Origin: Cytophagales bacterium
Lineage (GTDB): Bacteria; Bacteroidota; Bacteroidia; Cytophagales; Cyclobacteriaceae
Reading direction: 5' to 3'
Length of the DNA: 53,854 bases
NCBI GenBank assembly: GCA_022360875.1
Contig: JAKSBZ010000377.1
Span: forward strand, 1 to 53,854
Positions 29,268-40,285 of this stretch are shown here, in pieces (the first letter of the stretch is position 1; each line of letters begins with the position of its first letter). The notes beneath the pieces are model-generated. The model worked only from the letters and a program-made list of their open reading frames with translations, was not told the DNA's origin and made no database searches. Both the position numbers and the translations under genes were made by a program.

Positions 29268-30578
29268 GTGTTAACTCATTTTTCGTCTACAGTCAGGAAA
29301 GTGGAAAACAAGTCCGGAAGCGGCATTGCCAGGATGCCTCCGCATTTGAAGCAGACTCAAGTTATTCAGCCCAAAATCGGTTTTGAAATAGAGGTTCTGG
29401 ACGTCTACGTGCATCGAAATTATGATCAAGCCCTTGAATCTAACATCGCAGTTGATGTGAATGAGCTGAGTTTGAGTCCTTACGGAAAAGGTGAGGTGAT
29501 TATGCAGGGCAAAGGATATACACTGGAAGCAGACACTTATGAGTTCTATTTCCCTTATCTTGAAATAGTGACTGAACCTTTTGATGAGACGGCGGAGGGC
29601 TTTGAAAAAATGCGCCAGACTTTTCGGGAAATAGAAAACCTGTTCGAAAGCATTCTTGCTGTAACTGAAAAAAAGGAAGTGTTTTATCCGATTATTAACG
29701 ACAGACAATTTGGGACTTTCGCTCCTCATACTGAGAATACAGTACTGGAAATGCCGGCTGGCACGATAAAAGGCTTTATGCAAGTAACAGCAGGTCTGGA
29801 CCTGGGCGCAGTAAGCCGGCTTTTTGAGAATATTCGCCCAATCTCTCCGTCGGATAGAGAATTCAGAAATTACTACAGAAGCTATGGCCAGCAGGCCTTT
29901 CTGAGGCTGAACCTCAATCCCGAACATAGAGACGCGGAGAAAGCGGAACATCTGGCCAAAGCTTATAAACTGTCGGAGTTGTATGCTGAAAAATATTCAC
30001 TGCATGAAAAAACGAAAGGCTTTCTGTGTTTGCTTTTTGCTTATTTGATGTGGGGAAAGCTTGGGTCTGCTATATATCCCAAGGTTTTTACGCCGGTTCT
30101 TGCAAAAACGGATTTTGCAGCCATGTTCAAGCTTTCGCCCGATTACGGCCGGCTTAGCGAGGCTAGCGGAGAATTACTCAAAGAAATATACGGTGATTTT
30201 TTGCAGCGCAGCAATTTGGAGCCTAAGGAGCCGCTTATACAATATGTATACGGACGAAAGAAAGCGGTTCATCAGCAGATTCTCAAATCGCTGACGCGTG
30301 AGAAATGGCTGGCGGGTATACTTGAGGGCAAGGATTTGCTTACAGAGAAGCATTTTCCGAACCGATTGCGGGCGTATGAGCTTGAATCTTTGGGAGTGTT
30401 GGGTGCCCAGACAGATGATGACGGTGATGTGTCAGGAAAACCAGTGTTTGAATTCAGGAGGCTGCCAAAGGTGGTGTTTTGTGAGGACTGGCGGCCTTTT
30501 GCCGAATTGTTGTTCCAGTATTTTTATGCATTGAATCATCAGATTCCTGCTTTTTTAGGAAAGACGGTTCCCATTTAA
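29268..30578 (+). CDS. Amidoligase-like protein 1 (shortest, most divergent paralogue)
   Basis: 436 residues from GTG at 29268; an in-frame stop sits right in front, and an ATG at 29334 is an alternative. Leader residues 1-34 end in TQVIQPK, then GFEIE (about 37-41), a region TLEAD...YLEIVTEPFDE, MQVTAGLDL (about 170-180), and VFEFRRLP near the C-terminus. These match the Mg2+-Glu, D/E...EIVT and late EFR positions of amidoligase and glutamate-cysteine-ligase-like (COOH-NH2 ligase) folds. It lacks the MFQ start and the AWP...E insert shared by the next three genes, and its promoter region is occupied by repeat copy B. The likely reaction is ATP-dependent amide bond formation on a peptide or amino acid; no substrate known. 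Confidence 0.6.
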   Translation: MLTHFSSTVRKVENKSGSGIARMPPHLKQTQVIQPKIGFEIEVLDVYVHRNYDQALESNIAVDVNELSLSPYGKGEVIMQGKGYTLEADTYEFYFPYLEIVTEPFDETAEGFEKMRQTFREIENLFESILAVTEKKEVFYPIINDRQFGTFAPHTENTVLEMPAGTIKGFMQVTAGLDLGAVSRLFENIRPISPSDREFRNYYRSYGQQAFLRLNLNPEHRDAEKAEHLAKAYKLSELYAEKYSLHEKTKGFLCLLFAYLMWGKLGSAIYPKVFTPVLAKTDFAAMFKLSPDYGRLSEASGELLKEIYGDFLQRSNLEPKEPLIQYVYGRKKAVHQQILKSLTREKWLAGILEGKDLLTEKHFPNRLRAYELESLGVLGAQTDDDGDVSGKPVFEFRRLPKVVFCEDWRPFAELLFQYFYALNHQIPAFLGKTVPI

Positions 30579-30680
30579 AAAATAACATTGAATTATGCGT
30601 TGCTTGCTTTTTCGGAGATGGAGAAATGGATTTCGAAAACTGGCCAGGAGCTTGAATAAGAAGAATTCAGATACAGCTAA

Positions 30681-30703
30681 GGCTTTTTTATCGAAAGAAA
30701 TGT
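30681..30703 (+). promoter_or_regulatory. Upstream box shared with amidoligase-like genes 3 and 4 (weak copy)
   Basis: GGCTTTTTTATCGAAAGAAA resembles the GGTA-T8-GAAAGAA element before genes 3 and 4. It lies 19 bases before the ATG at 30722. Possible promoter or leader element, carried along by tandem duplication. Confidence 0.3.
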
Positions 30704-30721
30704 TGGTAAATGTTCTTGTGT

Positions 30722-32143
30722 ATGTTTCAAAAGCCTCTCATATATAAACCGTTAAGTTATAGGCGAAAAAAATCTTCAGGAACGGCAGATATTAAGCAAG
30801 CGATGGCTGCCCAGCGAAAGGTTTTTCCGCCGAAAGGTAAGGTTATTCAGTGTGCTGTGGGCTTTGAAATCGAAATTCGTTTCACTCCGTTTCGCAACAT
30901 GGAGCATTTCAACGAGTATGTGAAGTCTTTCATCCCTTTCCGGGATTCCAAGTTCGAACGTTTCAAGAAGAACGATGTGCTGTTGAAAGGATTGGATTTT
31001 GAACTGAGAGTGGACTTGTCTATGGAGGACATGATGCCCTACTTGGAGATTGTTACTGCACCCTTTGAGGAGTCAGCTGCTGGACTGAAAAAGATGAATG
31101 CGGCTTTTGAAGTTCTTCACATGATGATGAGAGATTTAACCAGGGCAGATGGCGATGAAGCCAGTGCATTGGACTTTTATCAAATATTCGGAAACTACGG
31201 TGAAATCAAGGGGAAAGACCGGACAATTAGGCTGCTGGGACATCCTCCTTTTTATGAAGGAGTTTTTCAGGTGACTGCAGGAATAGGTTTAGAGCGTATT
31301 CCTATTGTTTTTAGGGACCTTGCCTGGCCGGACGACGATGAGGACCCAGATCTTGTCAGAAGGCGGGAAATGGGGAGAAGGTGGCTTATTGGCTGGAAAA
31401 GAGAAAAAGCCGATGAGTATGATCCGGATTTGAGCAGAGCTCGTAAGTTTCAAAAAATCAATGAAGTTATAAGAGGATTGCGTGTTTTTTCGACTGAAGG
31501 ATCATCAAGAATAATGTCAGGTCCAGTACCCTGGTCGCCGAGTCTGGAGGGGTTGCTTTCAATGATTGCCCAGTATTTACTGCTCACTCATACCAGGCTG
31601 AGGCGTTATCCAAAATCCTTTGCGGTTTTGCTCAGCCGAAACGATTTTGCCAGTCTTTTTCAGTTGCTTAGCGCTGAACAAAAAGCTTTTTTCAATGCAG
31701 GGCAAAATTGGTCTCACTTTATGAAAATACTGTCGAGCAGGCTGGAGGTAGGGGATGCAGAAGAACCGCTTTTTTCCGGAGGCGTATTTCACGGCTTCGG
31801 CGGAGAATTTAAAGAGCTGCGGCATGCATTTGCTCCTTTGTCCCGAATGGACTGGCTGGTGCAGATTCCTAAAGGAAAGGACCTTCTGACAGAAAAGTTT
31901 TTTCCCGTTCGTGAACACAAGCATTTTTTCAAGTCTTTTGGCGAGTTTGGAGGAAAAATGGATTCTGTTGATATAGCAGGCCTGAAAATGAATGCACCGA
32001 TTTTTGAATTTCGGATGATAGGTTTTCGATTGCATTTTTGGCAATGGAAAAATTTTGCCCAGGCTGCGCATAGTTGGATTAGCGCTCTGAACAGCGGAAA
32101 GGATGTGAAATTTGGTGAAACGGAAGGTTTCATGGGCTTTTAG
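30722..32143 (+). CDS. Amidoligase-like protein 2
   Basis: 473 residues from the ATG at 30722; this gives the MFQ start shared with genes 3 and 4, whereas the ATG at 30710 adds only four residues. Leader (1-43): basic, RRKKSSGTADIKQAM, ending VIQC, where the others have VIQR. Then GFEIE (47-51), FELRVDLSMEDMMPYLEIVTAPFEE (about 94-118), FQVTAGI, AWPDDDEDPD insertion, LLSMIAQYLLL, GKDLLTEKFFP and IFEFRMI near 428-434. These fit an amidoligase / GCS-like ligase fold. No membrane helix and no Sec signal. The gene is separated by 143 bp from gene 1 and 219 bp from gene 3, so each copy probably has its own promoter. Confidence 0.65.
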   Translation: MFQKPLIYKPLSYRRKKSSGTADIKQAMAAQRKVFPPKGKVIQCAVGFEIEIRFTPFRNMEHFNEYVKSFIPFRDSKFERFKKNDVLLKGLDFELRVDLSMEDMMPYLEIVTAPFEESAAGLKKMNAAFEVLHMMMRDLTRADGDEASALDFYQIFGNYGEIKGKDRTIRLLGHPPFYEGVFQVTAGIGLERIPIVFRDLAWPDDDEDPDLVRRREMGRRWLIGWKREKADEYDPDLSRARKFQKINEVIRGLRVFSTEGSSRIMSGPVPWSPSLEGLLSMIAQYLLLTHTRLRRYPKSFAVLLSRNDFASLFQLLSAEQKAFFNAGQNWSHFMKILSSRLEVGDAEEPLFSGGVFHGFGGEFKELRHAFAPLSRMDWLVQIPKGKDLLTEKFFPVREHKHFFKSFGEFGGKMDSVDIAGLKMNAPIFEFRMIGFRLHFWQWKNFAQAAHSWISALNSGKDVKFGETEGFMGF

Positions 32144-32231
32144 TGTTTAGCTTGAGCGCTGTATCCAGGTGAATTTGAAAAGTCGTTGAGTTTTTATGTG
32201 TTTGCATTGCAGCGGAGCAAAATGCCGATGG

Positions 32232-32260
32232 GGTATTTTTTTTGAAAGAAAGATGTGTTG
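32232..32260 (+). promoter_or_regulatory. Shared upstream box of amidoligase-like genes, copy before gene 3
   Basis: GGTATTTTTTTTGAAAGAA occurs here and again at 33897-33915, word for word. It lies about 112 bases before the ATG of gene 3 but only 19 bases before that of gene 4, so it is not a ribosome-binding site. Promoter UP-element, regulator site or duplication relic are options. Confidence 0.4.
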
Positions 32261-32362
32261 TGCAATAATGGTCAAGTGTTGATTCAGGCTGAATCGCAAG
32301 TAATTAATTAATCACTGAGGAAGGGACTAGATTGCACGAAGTGCAAAGAGAAATAATCTTTT

Positions 32363-33784
32363 ATGTTCCAGCATGTTTCTCCCAAAAAATCTTCGGTTTC
32401 CCGGCAGAAAAATTCTGCAACTGCGGATGTTTTTCAGGCGCTGGATTCCCGCCCTAATTTATTGTCTAGGGATAACCGGGTCATTCAGCGTGCGGTGGGT
32501 TTTGAGATTGAAATTAAATACAGTCCGTTCAGAGATGCTGGACACTTGCTGGAGTTTGTGAAGCACCGCGATCCTTACAGAGATTACGGTATTGAACGGT
32601 TTAACAAAGATGATGTCCTTATGAAAGGGCAGGGCTTTGAATTGCGGGTGGATTTGGTGCATCAGAATCAATTGCCTTATCTGGAATTTGTCACCGATCC
32701 TTTCGAAGAAACATTGTCAGGCTGGAGAAAGCTCAATGCCGCTTTTGATACCATGGTTTCGATAATGCGCGATTTAGTTGACGCCTCGCAGGAGAACCGT
32801 TACAATGTGGATTTTTTTCAGGTTTTCAAAAAATACGGAGAAATTGAGCGTAAAAACCGGGCGATACGGATGATCGGGCGTCTGCCGCTTGACAGCGGTT
32901 TGTTCCAAATGACTGCCGGGATTGCCCTTGAGCGTATTCCGGTTGTTTTCCAGGATATTGCCTGGCCCGAACCCGGAGAAGATCCCGTGCTTTTCAAAAG
33001 AAGGGAAGCCGGCAGGGACTGGCTGATCAGTTGGAAAAAAGAAAAGGCGGACTTGTATATACTGAAGACAAACAGGGCGCTGAAACTCAGGATAATAAAT
33101 GAGGTGATAAGGGAGCTTCGCACCAGCTTTCCGGATAAGGTTGCAGTAAAAATGACCGGGGCCATTCCATGGACGGCAAAGCTTGAGGGCCTGCTCAGCA
33201 TGATAGGCCAGTACCTGCTGTTTGCCCATCATAAGCTGGAGCGTTACCCAAAGTATTTTTCAACTTTGCTGGGCCGCACCGATTTTGCAAGTATGTTTCA
33301 GCTTCTTGGCGATGAGGAAAAAGAATTTTTTCGCAAAGACCGTAACTGGTTTCATTTAGTTGACCAGCTGGTAGAACGCCTGGGTATTGGCGGAATTGTC
33401 GATCCGGTTTTTTCTAAAGGAATATATCACGATTACGGGCCTAGGTTCGAAGATAAGCGCTATGTGCTTGATCCCTTGTCTCGGATGAGCTGGCTGATGG
33501 AACTTCCCAACAATAGAGATTTCCTGACAGAAGGATTTTTCCCGATTCCGGAATATAAGCATCTGTTCAAGTCATTTGGCGAGTTCGGCTCTAATTACGA
33601 TTCTGTAGATATTGCAGGCCGGAAAGAGCAGGTTCCGATATTTGAGTTCCGGACAATAAGCAAAAGACCGCCTTGTTCAGAGTGGAAGACATTCGCACAG
33701 GAGGCGTATCAATGGATACGGGCTTTGAATGCCGGCGCAGACAGCAAGTTTGGCGAGTGGAGGGAACCGGAAGATTTTGTATAG
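32363..33784 (+). CDS. Amidoligase-like protein 3
   Basis: 473 residues, ATG at 32363. Leader 1-43 has KKSSVSRQKNSATADVFQ, then ALDSRPNLLS and ends VIQR (40-43). Conserved core: GFEIE (46-50), FELRVDLVHQNQLPYLEFVTDP (92-113), FQMTAGIALERIPVVF (181-196), AWPEPGEDPV, LEGLLSMIGQYLLFAH, YPKYFSTLLGRTDFASMFQLL, and IFEFR (426-430). The Glu residues of GFEIE, the Asp of LRVD and the E of YLEFVT are the positions expected to hold Mg-ATP in GCS-like ligases. The ALDSRP..VIQR leader resembles N-termini I recall from Bacteroidota proteins bearing DUF4157-type domains; role in export or loading is a guess. Confidence 0.67.
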   Translation: MFQHVSPKKSSVSRQKNSATADVFQALDSRPNLLSRDNRVIQRAVGFEIEIKYSPFRDAGHLLEFVKHRDPYRDYGIERFNKDDVLMKGQGFELRVDLVHQNQLPYLEFVTDPFEETLSGWRKLNAAFDTMVSIMRDLVDASQENRYNVDFFQVFKKYGEIERKNRAIRMIGRLPLDSGLFQMTAGIALERIPVVFQDIAWPEPGEDPVLFKRREAGRDWLISWKKEKADLYILKTNRALKLRIINEVIRELRTSFPDKVAVKMTGAIPWTAKLEGLLSMIGQYLLFAHHKLERYPKYFSTLLGRTDFASMFQLLGDEEKEFFRKDRNWFHLVDQLVERLGIGGIVDPVFSKGIYHDYGPRFEDKRYVLDPLSRMSWLMELPNNRDFLTEGFFPIPEYKHLFKSFGEFGSNYDSVDIAGRKEQVPIFEFRTISKRPPCSEWKTFAQEAYQWIRALNAGADSKFGEWREPEDFV

Positions 33785-33896
33785 ACGGGCAGTGCGTCAG
33801 AATGTTCCTTGTAAGCTGTTTTGCTGAGGCGGCGGTTTCGCTTAGGGGCCTGTGCCCAGAGTTTCTGCTTTCAATTTGAAAGCATAGGACTTCTAA

Positions 33897-33921
33897 GGTA
33901 TTTTTTTTGAAAGAATAATTG
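33897..33921 (+). promoter_or_regulatory. Shared upstream box of amidoligase-like genes, copy before gene 4
   Basis: Second exact copy of GGTATTTTTTTTGAAAGAA, 19 bases before the ATG at 33935. See the copy at 32232. Confidence 0.4.
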
Positions 33922-33934
33922 AAAGTATTTTTTG

Positions 33935-35359
33935 ATGTTCCAGACCAACTACAGTACTGAGCCTGCAATTTCCAAGAGGAAGAATCCTGAGGGAACTTCC
34001 GATATTTTTCAGGCTTTGAAGTCGCATAGAAGAATATTTGATCAAGGAAGTCAAGTCATTCAGCGCGCTGTGGGTTTTGAAATTGAGCTGAGCTACAATC
34101 TATATCGCAACAGAGAACATTTAAGCGAAATGGTGAAAGAAAACGTGCCTGTGCGCAGTTCCAGATTTGAGCGTTTCAAAAAAGATGATGTGTTGCTGAA
34201 AGGGAAAGATTTTGAGCTGCGTGTGGACGTATCGCCAAACAATCTTATGCCCTATCTGGAGATTGTAACCGTGCCGTTTGACGATACTGCTGAGGGTTGG
34301 GATAAACTGAATGCCGCTTTTGATGCAATAGTTGCAATGATGCACGACTTGTTTACGGTTGCCCAGCGGTGGTGGACGAATTTGGGTTTTCTTGAGGTGT
34401 TTAAGAAGCACGGAGAGATTGATCCAAAAGATCATGAGATCAGATTGAAAGGTTTTTTCCCGTTGAGTTCCGGAGGCTTTCAGATGACTGCGGGAATTGA
34501 TCTTGAGCGCGTTCCTATTGTTTTTCAGGACCTTGCCTGGCCTGAGGAAGCTGAGGATGCAGCGCTTTCGGAAAGGAGGGCCAAAGGAAGGAAATGGTTT
34601 ATTGACTGGAGGAAAGAAAAGGCTGATGATTATCTTCCGGAATTAAATGAAGCGCTTGGATTTCAGAAAATCAACAAAGTGCTTAATGAGATGCAGTTCG
34701 GTTTGCCTGAGAGTATGGTAAAAAAAATGGCTGGTGCTATTCCGTGGTCAGCGAAGCTGTCCGGATTGCTGAGCATGATTGCCCAGTACCTGTTGCTTGC
34801 TAACCAAGAGTTGGAGCGTTATCCCAAATCATTTTCTGTTTTGTTTGGCCGGACAGATTTTGTGCACCTGTTTGAACTGTTGAGTGATGAGGAAAAAGCT
34901 TTTTTCCGCGTAGAGAAAAATTGGTTTCATCTGATGGACGAACTGATCAGGCGCTTGGATATCGGAGGAATTAATGAGCCATTTTATTCTAAAGGAATCT
35001 ATCATAATTACGGTGAAGAGTTCAAGGACATGCGGTATGCGCTTTCCCCTTTGTCTAGAATGAGCTGGTTGATGGAAATTCCCAAAGGGAAGGATTTGCT
35101 GACGGAAAAGTTTTTTCCTATCCCGGAGTTCAAATCATTGTTCAGGTCCTTTGGTGAGTTTGCCGGAAAATATGACACGATTGAAGTGCAGGGACAGAAG
35201 GTTCAAGTTCCGATTTTTGAATTCAGAATGATCAGCAACAAGTTGCACTATGTTCAGTGGAAAAGGTTTGCGCAAGAGGCCTATCAGTGGGTTTTGGCGC
35301 TGAATGCTGGTCTGGATCAAAAATTCGGGGAATGGAAGCCGCAGGTTTCACAAATGTAA
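33935..35359 (+). CDS. Amidoligase-like protein 4
   Basis: 474 residues from the ATG at 33935 (a TTG codon lies just before it in frame). Leader 1-44: SKRKNPEGTSDIFQALKSHRRIF, ending VIQR (41-44). Core: GFEIE (47-51), FELRVDVSPNNLMPYLEIVTVPFDD, FQMTAGIDLERVPIVF, AWPEEAEDAA, LSGLLSMIAQYLLLAN, GKDLLTEKFFP and IFEFRMI. Closest to proteins 2 and 3 in length and motif spacing. Differences cluster in the leader and in the loop after EIVT, hinting at substrate or partner diversification after duplication. Cytoplasmic, no signal peptide. Ends at a bidirectional terminator shared with sucC. Confidence 0.67.
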   Translation: MFQTNYSTEPAISKRKNPEGTSDIFQALKSHRRIFDQGSQVIQRAVGFEIELSYNLYRNREHLSEMVKENVPVRSSRFERFKKDDVLLKGKDFELRVDVSPNNLMPYLEIVTVPFDDTAEGWDKLNAAFDAIVAMMHDLFTVAQRWWTNLGFLEVFKKHGEIDPKDHEIRLKGFFPLSSGGFQMTAGIDLERVPIVFQDLAWPEEAEDAALSERRAKGRKWFIDWRKEKADDYLPELNEALGFQKINKVLNEMQFGLPESMVKKMAGAIPWSAKLSGLLSMIAQYLLLANQELERYPKSFSVLFGRTDFVHLFELLSDEEKAFFRVEKNWFHLMDELIRRLDIGGINEPFYSKGIYHNYGEEFKDMRYALSPLSRMSWLMEIPKGKDLLTEKFFPIPEFKSLFRSFGEFAGKYDTIEVQGQKVQVPIFEFRMISNKLHYVQWKRFAQEAYQWVLALNAGLDQKFGEWKPQVSQM

Positions 35360-37120: not shown

Positions 37121-38617
37121 CTAGTTGCAGCTTAAGGATTGAAATTCCAGATAGCTGAGGGAGAGACCGTCTTTCAGGTTTTCGATTTTAAAGTTATCTC
37201 CATGTCTGGGAATTGTTGAGTAATAAAAATTGAATTTCTTTCGAAGCGGACAGAGGTTTTCAAGGCTGTCGCAGCTTATTAGCTTAAATGATTCGCCGCC
37301 AATTAAGCTTCTGAAGGCATCAATGGTATGCAGTGACGGACAGTTGACAACAGATAACCTTTCGAATCTGTGAAATCTATCGAACCCTTTAATGTGGGTT
37401 AGGTGTTCGTTGTTTGTGAAGCAAAGGGAATTCACACGTTCTAGTTTGTCAAAGCCGTCAATTTGTGTGAGCCCGTGCGCATAATTAAAGGTCAGCGCGT
37501 TTACTTCTTCGAGATTTGGAAATGCATTGATAGTGTTGTAAAGGCATCTTTCAAAAGTTATTGACTTGGCATATTTGAGCGAGTTCATTTTGGACAAGTC
37601 AAGAGTATGTTGAAAATTGAAATAAAGATGCCCCTCATAGTGTGTAATTTGATATTGTTTAATGAGGTTGACCGTATAAGGGCCGTTGTAGGGAGGATTA
37701 TTGGGCCAAGGATAAGGATTTGGGTACTTATCTATGTATGCCATATAGCGAGAGAAATGTATGTTTTTGGATTCCTCATCTAGCAGCAGGTTTATCGGAT
37801 CTAAGTTTGGTCCGTAAAAGCCGTAGCCCAACCAAACACCTTCGAAATAGTAATTTTGATGATCAGAATAAAAACTGTAGCGCTGTGTAGCGTAATTTTC
37901 TGAACTTACGCGCAACTGAACGGTAGTTGCGTCTCCCTGAAGATCAATATCAAATCGGCGAACGCCAAAAGGCAGACTGTCCTCCTGGTAAAGCATTACG
38001 CTGTCTTCCAGCCGCAGCACCTCTAGTTTATAATATCCGTCATCTGCAAACAGGCTGTCTTTTTGCCGGACTCCCAGCGTAAATCCCAGCAAACTGTTTT
38101 TGATAACAACGGAGCTCAAGTGATAGCCGAAGCCATCCAAAAAGGCATCTATGACCGGAACAACTTCAACTTGGAGAACATTCTCTTCTTCGCTGATTGT
38201 GAATTCCAGCGGCAGGGGATTATTAACAGTGGACAGAATTTGTTCGCTGGCATTCTCATCCGGACAGGCATAGAGTGTTGTGCCGGACTCGCTGAGCAGT
38301 TCAAAACGGGTTAATTTGTGTTCCCCGAAAGGCAGTACAATCGGGTCGATGGCAACTCTTCTGTCGCTTATTTGTGTAGCCTTTACTGTTTTATTATAGG
38401 TGTCATTCACGCCTACAACCTGAAAGCTAGCTGAATGAATATCTTGTGGCCGGGGAAAGAAGGATGAAGTTTTCGCTGCCCGGGCTTCCGGGCTGGAGAG
38501 CTCTCTGATATCCAAAGAAAAACCAATGCTTCCGCTGGGATCGTCTTCTGTTTGTTCGCAGCTGGCCAGCAAAAAGGCAACCAGCAGACAGATCAATGTA
38601 AAATGTAGATTTTTCAT
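37121..38617 (-). CDS. Leucine-rich-ladder lipoprotein 1
   Basis: 498 residues. Lipoprotein signal KNLHFTLICLLVAFLLASC (Cys20). Residues about 27-265 form a beta-rich domain with ACPDENASEQIL and LLGFTLGVRQKDSLFADDGYYKLEVLRLEDS. Residues about 330-490 contain irregular leucine-rich-type repeats of 20-25 residues (LKYAKSITFERCLYNTINAFPNLEEVNALTF, GFDKLERVNSLCF, GFDRFHRFERLSVVNCPSLHTIDAF), similar to receptor-L-domain ladders. Likely an outer-membrane-anchored surface protein for binding or adhesion. Tandem duplicate of the next gene; 71% or more of the N-terminal and middle parts look identical by eye, the LRR part less so. Confidence 0.8.
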   Translation of the reverse strand: MKNLHFTLICLLVAFLLASCEQTEDDPSGSIGFSLDIRELSSPEARAAKTSSFFPRPQDIHSASFQVVGVNDTYNKTVKATQISDRRVAIDPIVLPFGEHKLTRFELLSESGTTLYACPDENASEQILSTVNNPLPLEFTISEEENVLQVEVVPVIDAFLDGFGYHLSSVVIKNSLLGFTLGVRQKDSLFADDGYYKLEVLRLEDSVMLYQEDSLPFGVRRFDIDLQGDATTVQLRVSSENYATQRYSFYSDHQNYYFEGVWLGYGFYGPNLDPINLLLDEESKNIHFSRYMAYIDKYPNPYPWPNNPPYNGPYTVNLIKQYQITHYEGHLYFNFQHTLDLSKMNSLKYAKSITFERCLYNTINAFPNLEEVNALTFNYAHGLTQIDGFDKLERVNSLCFTNNEHLTHIKGFDRFHRFERLSVVNCPSLHTIDAFRSLIGGESFKLISCDSLENLCPLRKKFNFYYSTIPRHGDNFKIENLKDGLSLSYLEFQSLSCN

Positions 38618-38797: not shown

Positions 38798-40285
38798 TCA
38801 GTAGCAGCTTAAGGATTGAAATTCCAGATAGCTGAGGGAAAGGCTGTCTTTCAGGTTTTCGATTTTGAAGTTTTCTCCATGAGTTGGGATGGTTGAGTAA
38901 AGGAAATTGTAATTTTTTCGAAGCGGGCAGAGGTTTTCAAGGCTGTCGCAGTTTAACAGTTTGAATGATTTGCTTCCCACTAAATCATCGAAGGCTTCAA
39001 TGGAATGCAGCGTCGGACAGTCGGCAATCAATAAGTTTTCAAAGCTTCCGAATCTATCGAATCCTTCGAGATGGGTTAGGTTCTCATTGAAGCTGATATT
39101 AAGGGATTTTACACGTTCTAGCTTGTTGAATCCGTCAATCAGCGTGAGTCCGTGTGCTCTTTGAAAGCCGAGGGAAATTACCTCTTCGAGGTTGGGAAAG
39201 GCATTGATGGTGTTGTAAAGGCATCTGTCAAAGGTTATAAATTCGGCATATTTGAGCGAGTTCAGTTTGGAGAGGTCAAATGTTTGAGAATGGTCGAAGT
39301 ACAGCTCGCCCAGATAATGTGTGATTTTATAATGATTTATGAAGTTTACTGTGTAAAGGCCAGTAGGAGGAGGAGTAGCCCAAGGATTGGGCGGTTTTTC
39401 CAAATATCTCATATAGCGAGAGAAAAGGAAATTTTTGGGCTCATCGTCTAGCAGCAGGTTTATCGGATCTGTATTTGGGCCGTAGAAGGCATAACCTAAC
39501 CAAACGCCTTCGAAATAGTAATTCTGATGGTCGGAAAAAAAGCTGTAGCGCTGCGTGCCGAAATTTTCTGAGCTTACGCACAACTGAACAAGGCTAGCGT
39601 CTCCCTGAAGATTAATATCAAATCGGCGAACACCGAAGGGCAGACTGTCCTCCTGGTAAAGCATTACGCTGTCTTCCAGTCGCAGCACCTCTAGTTTATA
39701 ATATCCGTCATCTGCAAACAGGCTGTCTTTTTGCCGGACTCCCAGCGTAAATCCCAGCAAGCTGTTTTTGATAACAACGGAGCTCAAGTGATAGCCGAAC
39801 TCATCCAAGAAGGCATCTATGACCGGAACAACTTCAACTTGGAGAGCATTCTCTTCTTCGCTGATTGTAAATGCCAGCGGCAGGGGATTATTTATAGTTG
39901 ACAGAATTTGCTCGCTGGCATTCTCATCCGGACAGGCATAGAGTGTTGTGCCGGATTCGTTGAGCAGTTCAAAACGGGATAATTTGAATTCCCCGAAAGG
40001 CAGTACAATCGGTTCGATGGAAACTCTTCTTTCACTTATAAGTGTAGCTTTTACCGTTTTATTATAGGTGTCATCCAAGCCTATTACTCTAAATCTAGCT
40101 GAATGAATATCTTGTGGCCGGGGAAAGAAGGATGAAGTTTTCGCTGTCCGGGCTTCCGGGCTGGAGAGCTCTCTGATGTCCAAAGAAAAACCAATGCTTC
40201 CGCTGGGATCTTCTTCAGTATGTTCGCAGTCTGCGAGCAAAAAGGCAGCAAGCAGACAGATCAATGTGAAATACAGATTTTTCAT
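38798..40285 (-). CDS. Leucine-rich-ladder lipoprotein 2
   Basis: 495 residues, paralogue of the preceding gene with the same lipoprotein signal (KNLYFTLICLLAAFLLADC), beta-rich N-terminal domain and C-terminal leucine-rich ladder (LKYAEFITFDRCLYNTINAFPNLEEVISLGF, GFDRFGSFENLLIADCPTLHSIEAF). Differences gather in the ladder: surface-facing residues change while the leucine/phenylalanine frame is kept, as expected if the two proteins bind different partners. The 39610-39810 and 37930-38130 blocks differ at only a few bases, so gene conversion may have kept them alike. No catalytic motif. Stands upstream of copy 1 on the same strand. Confidence 0.8.
   Translation of the reverse strand: MKNLYFTLICLLAAFLLADCEHTEEDPSGSIGFSLDIRELSSPEARTAKTSSFFPRPQDIHSARFRVIGLDDTYNKTVKATLISERRVSIEPIVLPFGEFKLSRFELLNESGTTLYACPDENASEQILSTINNPLPLAFTISEEENALQVEVVPVIDAFLDEFGYHLSSVVIKNSLLGFTLGVRQKDSLFADDGYYKLEVLRLEDSVMLYQEDSLPFGVRRFDINLQGDASLVQLCVSSENFGTQRYSFFSDHQNYYFEGVWLGYAFYGPNTDPINLLLDDEPKNFLFSRYMRYLEKPPNPWATPPPTGLYTVNFINHYKITHYLGELYFDHSQTFDLSKLNSLKYAEFITFDRCLYNTINAFPNLEEVISLGFQRAHGLTLIDGFNKLERVKSLNISFNENLTHLEGFDRFGSFENLLIADCPTLHSIEAFDDLVGSKSFKLLNCDSLENLCPLRKNYNFLYSTIPTHGENFKIENLKDSLSLSYLEFQSLSCY

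What the first reader, a model, noticed from the sequence alone, without database searches (positions are those of the whole stretch)
29268..35359. Tandem array of four amidoligase / GCS-like proteins
Seen: four paralogous genes in a row, same strand, each with GFEIE, an ELRVD...YLEIVTxPF segment (LEAD...YLEIVT in the first), an FQ(V/M)TAGI-type segment and a late FEFR. Established: the amidoligase (Amidoligase_2) and glutamate-cysteine-ligase-like folds use a GxExE Mg-binding start, a D...E(L/I)V(T/S) strand and a late E(F)R. Inference: four ATP-dependent carboxylate-amine ligases, possibly modifying peptides, in a Bacteroidota genome and without an obvious biosynthetic partner. The array has the look of recent, diversifying duplication.
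Basis: partly seen in the sequence, partly recalled or inferred. Interest (0 to 1): 0.85.

Follow-up and report, generated by a model that had tools for sequence, protein, structure and literature searches.

The report
Injected protein-welding enzyme gene family
Four neighbouring genes, part of a family of at least twenty in this bacterium, encode enzymes predicted to share the fold of a bacterial toxin that welds actin molecules together, and they are likely carried into other cells by the bacterium's phage-tail-like injection particles.

Summary
In detail: four paralogous genes at 29268-35359 carry the motifs described. The genome has 21 family ORFs on 8 contigs (two cut at contig ends, so at least 20 genes).

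Relatives point to injection: 13 of 23 outside proteins are fused to eCIS_core (DUF4157), the marker domain of contractile-injection cargo; one relative lies beside an eCIS operon, one inside a type VI secretion locus. The window's genome has two eCIS loci, and the family leaders show three of four published eCIS-signal features tested.

Against this, the window array is not near an eCIS locus and lacks eCIS_core. Likely role: ACD-like cross-linking cargo of contractile injection particles; the target is untested. A new variant of a known kind: a predicted actin-cross-linking eCIS toxin (EAT13) is already published.

The parts
29268..30578 (+). Family member 1 (436 aa), the divergent one of the array; predicted ACD-fold ligase
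30710..32143 (+). Family member 2 (477 aa; ATG at 30722 is an alternative start)
   Evidence: (53% identical to member 3)
32363..33784 (+). Family member 3 (473 aa); predicted ACD-fold ligase
33932..35359 (+). Family member 4 (475 aa; likely start ATG at 33935)
   Evidence: (57% identical to member 3)
32363..32485 (+). Leader of member 3 (residues 1-41), up to the VI of its VIQ motif: predicted disordered, basic, hydrophilic
   Evidence: pLDDT under 50 over residues 1-42; eCIS-signal-like features
29268..29366 (+). Leader of member 1 (residues 1-33), up to the VI of its VIQ motif; predicted disordered
30710..30847 (+). Leader of member 2 (residues 1-46), up to the VI of its VIQ motif
33935..34060 (+). 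Leader of member 4 (42 residues from ATG 33935), up to the VI of its VIQ motif
32486..33781 (+). Catalytic domain of member 3 (residues 42-473)
32504..32512 (+). Glu48 to Glu50 of member 3 (GFEIE motif)
   Evidence: Glu48 in all 26 rows of A1 with a letter there, Glu50 in 23 of 26
32684..32686 (+). Glu108 of member 3 (LEFVT strand)
   Evidence: all 26 rows of A1 with a letter there
32906..32908 (+). Gln182 of member 3 (FQMTAGI strand)
   Evidence: 27 of 27 rows of A1
33251..33253 (+). Lys297 of member 3
   Evidence: 27 of 27 rows of A1
33644..33652 (+). Glu428 to Arg430 of member 3 (FEFR)
   Evidence: Glu428 and Arg430 in 27 of 27 rows of A1

Best explanation
The four genes encode ATP-dependent ligases, predicted to share the actin-cross-linking-domain (ACD) fold, that are likely loaded into the bacterium's own contractile injection particles and would, once injected, weld target-cell proteins (most likely actin or another cytoskeletal protein) together through amide bonds. 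Shown here: the paralogous family of at least 20 genes, the retained ligase-type active-site residues, relatives fused to eCIS_core, one relative beside an eCIS operon and one inside a type VI secretion locus, and eCIS genes in the window's genome. Predicted: the fold, the ligase activity with ATP, and the disordered leader. Inferred: loading through the leader, acyl-phosphate chemistry as in ACD, a protein target in a eukaryotic cell (the gaps between array members are too short for a typical immunity gene), and that the many paralogues differ in target or host.
Against: The window contig has no hit to any of four eCIS marker families searched in the genome, and the array's nearest neighbours are fabH-like and sucC-like; in the published set 88% of eCIS toxins lie within ten genes of the operon (PMC11297309, passages). 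No window member has eCIS_core, and neither of the genome's two eCIS_core domains is in a family member. The leader model finds nothing outside the family in this genome (best other hit E 1.38), so it is not a sequence signal shared with other cargo. One of four leader features, aromatic residues in positions 1-8, was not clearly enriched (p 0.07), and the 19 leaders are related, so the p values overstate. No ACD profile hit over the cut-off in five family-bearing genomes. Foldseek's TM-scores for the ACD match are low (0.32-0.49, rmsd 7.9-13.9) and the two models share their alignment rows. eCIS presence alone proves little: 104 of 390 genomes of the order have CIS_tube, while 2 of 390 have the family, and only one of those two, G000, is among the 104.
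Confidence: 0.58

Rival explanations
1. Injected cargo as above, but the ligase attaches a small amine or amino acid to a target protein (for example glutamylation or amidation) instead of cross-linking two proteins.
For: Same delivery evidence. The active site kept is generic to the glutamine synthetase / GCS fold (the generic character is recalled), and GCL, YbdK, glutamine synthetase and PafA/Dop, which use small or peptide substrates (recalled), are the next fold matches.
Confidence: 0.22
2. Cytoplasmic amidoligases that make or modify a peptide or small molecule for the producing cell.
For: Housekeeping neighbours at the window array; no eCIS_core in the window members; the superfamily includes peptide-modifying enzymes (recalled).
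Against: eCIS_core fusions and contractile-system neighbourhoods of relatives; the basic, predicted-disordered leader. No biosynthetic partner stood out among the five neighbouring ORFs scanned; a precursor peptide was not searched for.
Confidence: 0.12
3. Antibacterial injected toxins of interbacterial competition rather than anti-eukaryotic effectors (this overlaps with the first explanation in delivery and chemistry).
For: One relative lies in a Bacteroidota type VI locus, and the next ORF listed downstream, 468 bases on, is an unknown 149-aa gene that could be an immunity gene.
Against: The gaps between the array members in the window are 131, 219 and 147 bases, too short for a typical immunity gene for each copy.
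Confidence: 0.1

Closest known systems
Actin cross-linking domain (ACD, Pfam PF16671) of VgrG1 and MARTX toxins
   Same: Best fold match for two predicted models; ACD is described as a distant glutamine synthetase-type ligase that joins actin Glu270 and Lys50 (PMC3448709 passages; PMC2908040 section 12); ACD toxins reach cells by type I or type VI secretion (PMC3448709 abstract start)
   Different: 12-14% identity; no PF16671 profile hit; stand-alone proteins with a short leader or fused to eCIS_core; actin as target untested
EAT13, predicted actin cross-linker of Candidatus Udaeobacter copiosus (Geller et al. 2021, PMC8213781)
   Same: eCIS-associated, flanked by DUF4157 genes, predicted to cross-link actin, kills yeast (passages)
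eCIS_core (DUF4157, PF13699) cargo proteins
   Same: Relatives of the window proteins are such fusions, with the ligase C-terminal to eCIS_core
   Different: The window members have a 33-46-residue leader and no eCIS_core
GCS2 / YbdK, glutamate-cysteine ligase, Amidoligase_2
   Same: Same fold superfamily; GxExE start and late ExR (motifs recalled)
PafA / Dop (Pup ligase and depupylase)
   Same: Protein-modifying members of the same superfamily (recalled)

Membership tests
Glutamine synthetase / GCS-type ligase superfamily | Fold, by structure comparison | tested here: met
   Rows 1-10 and 1-33 are ACD, YbdK, GCL, glutathione or glutamine synthetase, Dop or PafA; on predicted models
Glutamine synthetase / GCS-type ligase superfamily | Glu pair on the first strand, Glu on the second, late Glu-x-Arg (pattern recalled) | tested here: met
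   the second Glu of the pair is Gln in 3 of 26 rows of A1 and Ala in the G195 relative
ACD (PF16671) | Fold of the VgrG1 ACD | tested here: met
ACD (PF16671) | Match to the family's sequence profile | tested here: not met
   0 of 5 genomes over the cut-off; no match at all in G000 and G474 at E up to 10
ACD (PF16671) | ATP- and Mg-dependent joining of actin Glu270 to Lys50 | not testable with these tools
   Needs biochemistry
eCIS cargo (EAT) | eCIS_core domain in the protein | tested here: not met
   None of the 4 window proteins; 13 of 23 outside relatives have it. Published: 36% of EATs have it
eCIS cargo (EAT) | Within ten genes of an eCIS operon | tested here: not met
   No hit to four eCIS marker families on the window contig; met by the G474 relative
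eCIS cargo (EAT) | Hydrophilic, positive, disorder-prone N terminus with aromatic residues in the first eight | tested here: inconclusive
   19 members against 32 window genes: p 4e-7, 4e-6 and 4e-8 for the first three, 0.07 for aromatics. The published score itself was not run
eCIS cargo (EAT) | Found in purified particles | not testable with these tools
   Needs an experiment
Amidoligase_2 / GCS2 | Match to the Pfam profiles | tested here: not met
   No family hit for 4 window proteins at E up to 1; no ligase profile among the 5 families hit by the 22 members of A5 at E up to 10

The most novel reading that the evidence does not exclude
This bacterium carries an arsenal of some twenty injected protein-welding enzymes, a new branch of the actin-cross-linking fold, in which each paralogue joins a different host protein; the eCIS_core carrier domain has been replaced by a short leader that keeps only the VIQR-like junction as the loading or release mark, so that one needle system delivers a whole set of molecular welders.
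Probability: 0.25. Interest if true: 0.85.

Novelty: new variant of a known kind. Interest (0 to 1): 0.66.

Why it matters
A 2009 review held that actin-welding enzymes might be restricted to the Vibrionaceae (PMC2908040, section 12); the published EAT13 prediction already stretches that. A separate family, with no detectable sequence match to ACD but the same predicted fold, in Bacteroidota and Actinobacteria and tied to eCIS and T6SS, would widen the chemistry further, give contractile injection systems a new cargo class, and offer about twenty natural variants in one genome in which to learn how the target is chosen. The VIQR-like motif in eCIS_core proteins is a testable lead on how cargo is loaded or released.

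Tried and rejected
Amidoligase_2, GCS2 and any Pfam, NCBIfam, PHROGs or PADLOC family for the window proteins: no convincing hit. Sequence search of solved structures with one protein (two unrelated chains at E 1) and with two profiles (none): nothing relevant. Profile alignment to a GCS2 protein: none. A search of the phylum with alignment A5 (71 of 395 genomes) was badly posed: the model held the eCIS_core columns, so most matches were that domain; in the listing only G000 and G474 matched most of the ligase part, and G615 a short piece. It was repeated with A7 (3 of 395; G615 again only a 58-position piece with two stops). A leader-only model was tried as a general cargo signal and failed. 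A shared regulatory element: an identical 17-base stretch upstream of members 3 and 4 is not general (control genes reach 14 of 17) and is taken as a trace of duplication. Consensus promoters and terminators were near shuffle level. Literature, listings only: no paper holds both 'amidoligase' and 'contractile injection'; ('amidoligase', 'effector') listed 15 of 24, one search listed 20 of 94 and 10 of 41, none of which, by title, reports this family; of 'eCIS', 'actin cross-linking domain', 'DUF4157', 'ACD' one paper held three; 'eCIS core domain' or 'VIQR' listed 10 of 12 and nothing on the motif. The 2024 eCIS toxin paper does not mention actin in its main text. The library holds only open-licence papers.

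Full report
WHAT IS THERE. Members 2 and 4 are 53% and 57% identical to member 3; member 1 is 27% identical but clearly homologous (E 1.6e-29). The same search found 24 matches in the window's genome (G000, 4.55 Mb, 412 contigs, completeness 99.09, contamination 4), which fall into 21 ORFs on 8 contigs: C38 (the window) 4, C130 3, C65 2, C295 6, C139 1, C64 1, C6 2, C158 2. One ORF of C295 and the one of C64 are cut by contig ends and might be parts of one gene, so the count is at least 20. The end of C6 and the start of C158 share 141 bases, so those two pairs may form one array of four.

FAMILY. No Pfam or NCBIfam model hits the four window proteins at E up to 1. Homology searches gave 23 proteins outside the genome (P0006-P0028); named ones are from Aureibacter, Fulvitalea (one source calls it 'Amidoligase enzyme'), Saccharothrix and Tenacibaculum. 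Some look close to each other (P0017-P0019 by length, name and score; P0010 and P0020 in the tree). A genome scan added Streptomyces and Pseudonocardia loci. The family is rare: 2 of 390 genomes of the order (alignment A2) and 3 of 395 of the phylum, one of those only a broken fragment (alignment A7). These searches score only the first few candidates per genome.

DELIVERY. Of the 23 outside proteins, 13 carry eCIS_core (PF13699) by precomputed domains; I scanned 11 of these 13 and all 11 are over the cut-off (P0017 and P0018 not scanned). P0011 scores 20.0 bits against a cut-off of 22, and nine have none (P0006 and P0028 by the precomputed column only). The Streptomyces relative has eCIS_core as well. 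Four proteins without it (P0022, P0023, P0025, P0028) have near the N terminus a stretch with GN and then V or I after a leucine-containing start, like one in P0013 and the Streptomyces protein, which do have eCIS_core (seen by eye). In G474 the 789-aa fusion is next to another eCIS_core gene and, on the other strand, DUF4280, AAA, CIS tape measure, gp25 and spike genes; a sheath gene lies about 2 kb further on the same contig. In G195, which has no PF04984 sheath hit, the ligase gene lies in a type VI locus: AAA, TssC, TssD, OmpA, a 161-aa protein, the ligase, a 149-aa protein, a VasE-like match below its cut-off, TssN. So the five family-bearing genomes looked at all have some contractile system: a sheath hit in four (PF04984 is not specific to eCIS and rang in 3 of 14 controls) and a T6SS in the fifth.

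THE WINDOW'S GENOME. It has two eCIS loci: C260 with sheath, two tube proteins, CIS_tube and spike, and C189 with tape measure, baseplate J, sheath, tube and CIS_tube. It also has two eCIS_core proteins, neither of the family. Tetranucleotide make-up of these four contigs correlates 0.93-0.98 with the window, against 0.47 and 0.58 for two other genomes; this speaks against a distant contaminant but not against a near one. CIS_tube occurs in 104 of 390 genomes of the order, so its presence alone is weak evidence; of the two order genomes with the family only G000 is among the 104.

LEADER. The 19 members used (the C64 ORF and the cut C295 ORF left out) have more hydrophilic first 35 residues (mean -0.71 against 0.29), higher charge at 6-21 (3.4 against 0.1) and more disorder-promoting residues (0.67 against 0.37) than 32 hand-picked window genes; aromatic residues in the first eight are not clearly enriched (p 0.07). 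The start codon was moved by me in two of the 19, and the members are related, so the p values overstate. These are the directions reported for eCIS signal peptides (PMC11297309 section 9). Just before the domain stands [VPLMT][IV]Q plus a variable residue (R in 6 of 19, otherwise C, A, P or T). In 18 eCIS_core proteins picked by a HExxH rule from fetched Bacteroidota loci, [VIMLP][VIL]Q[RKM] occurs in 16, 25 times against 3.9 expected from shuffles (the motif was chosen after seeing the leaders); 5 of 32 window genes have it. I found no paper on it.

HISTORY. In the tree of 39 domains members 2-4 form one group (94/87) and join the three C130 genes (100/99); member 1 is apart, on a long branch; the five C295 genes form one group (100/100); C6 and C158 genes pair across contigs (100/96 and a weak 82/42) as if a two-gene block was duplicated. 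P0006 and P0007 (Aureibacter, Fulvitalea) are sister to the C38/C130 group and P0008 lies elsewhere, so several lineages seem to predate these genera. Long branches make some places unsure.

MECHANISM. ACD phosphorylates the side chain of actin Glu270 with ATP and then joins it to Lys50 of another actin (PMC3448709, passages; PMC2908040 section 12). With the same predicted fold and ligase residues, the family would do the same kind of reaction on some target protein. That the target is in a eukaryotic cell is inferred from the lack of room for immunity genes in the array and from the precedent EAT13, a predicted actin cross-linker flanked by DUF4157 genes that kills yeast (PMC8213781, passages). 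The target itself is unknown.

VERDICT. Real, more extensive than reported, and best read as a new, expanded family of ACD-fold ligases tied to contractile injection. My rough weights: ligase superfamily fold about 0.9; injected cargo about 0.75; cross-linking of actin or a similar protein, if injected, about 0.4 to 0.6. The rivals listed are not all exclusive of the main explanation.

Noticed in passing
window 37121-38617 and 38798-40285 (- strand): A second tandem pair of close paralogues near the array: two about 495-aa proteins with lipoprotein-like starts (by eye); the first has a leucine-rich-repeat signal below its cut-off.
   Followed up: partly
loci L014, L064-L080: A [VIMLP][VIL]Q[RKM] motif recurs in eCIS_core (DUF4157) proteins, 16 of 18 with 25 copies against 3.9 expected; it may mark loading, sorting or cleavage of cargo.
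   Followed up: partly
L082 3131-4426: Next to the ligase fusion in G474 lies another eCIS_core protein whose C terminus looks by eye like an ADP-ribosyltransferase (not tested).
   Followed up: no
L083 17930-19000: A true GCS2 (YbdK-like) gene lies a few genes from the ligase gene in the type VI locus of G195; probably coincidence.
   Followed up: partly
L021 7900-15358 (contig C295): A TGGAA(C/T)AGTAT(G/A)TG element recurs before several genes of the C295 array (seen in the upstream stretches printed).
   Followed up: no
window 32234-32250 and 33899-33915: An identical 17-base stretch upstream of members 3 and 4, likely a duplication trace.
   Followed up: yes
L021 12296-13612 and 13787-15103: Two C295 paralogues (and P0012) have Gln in place of the second Glu of GFExE; they may be altered in activity.
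   Followed up: no
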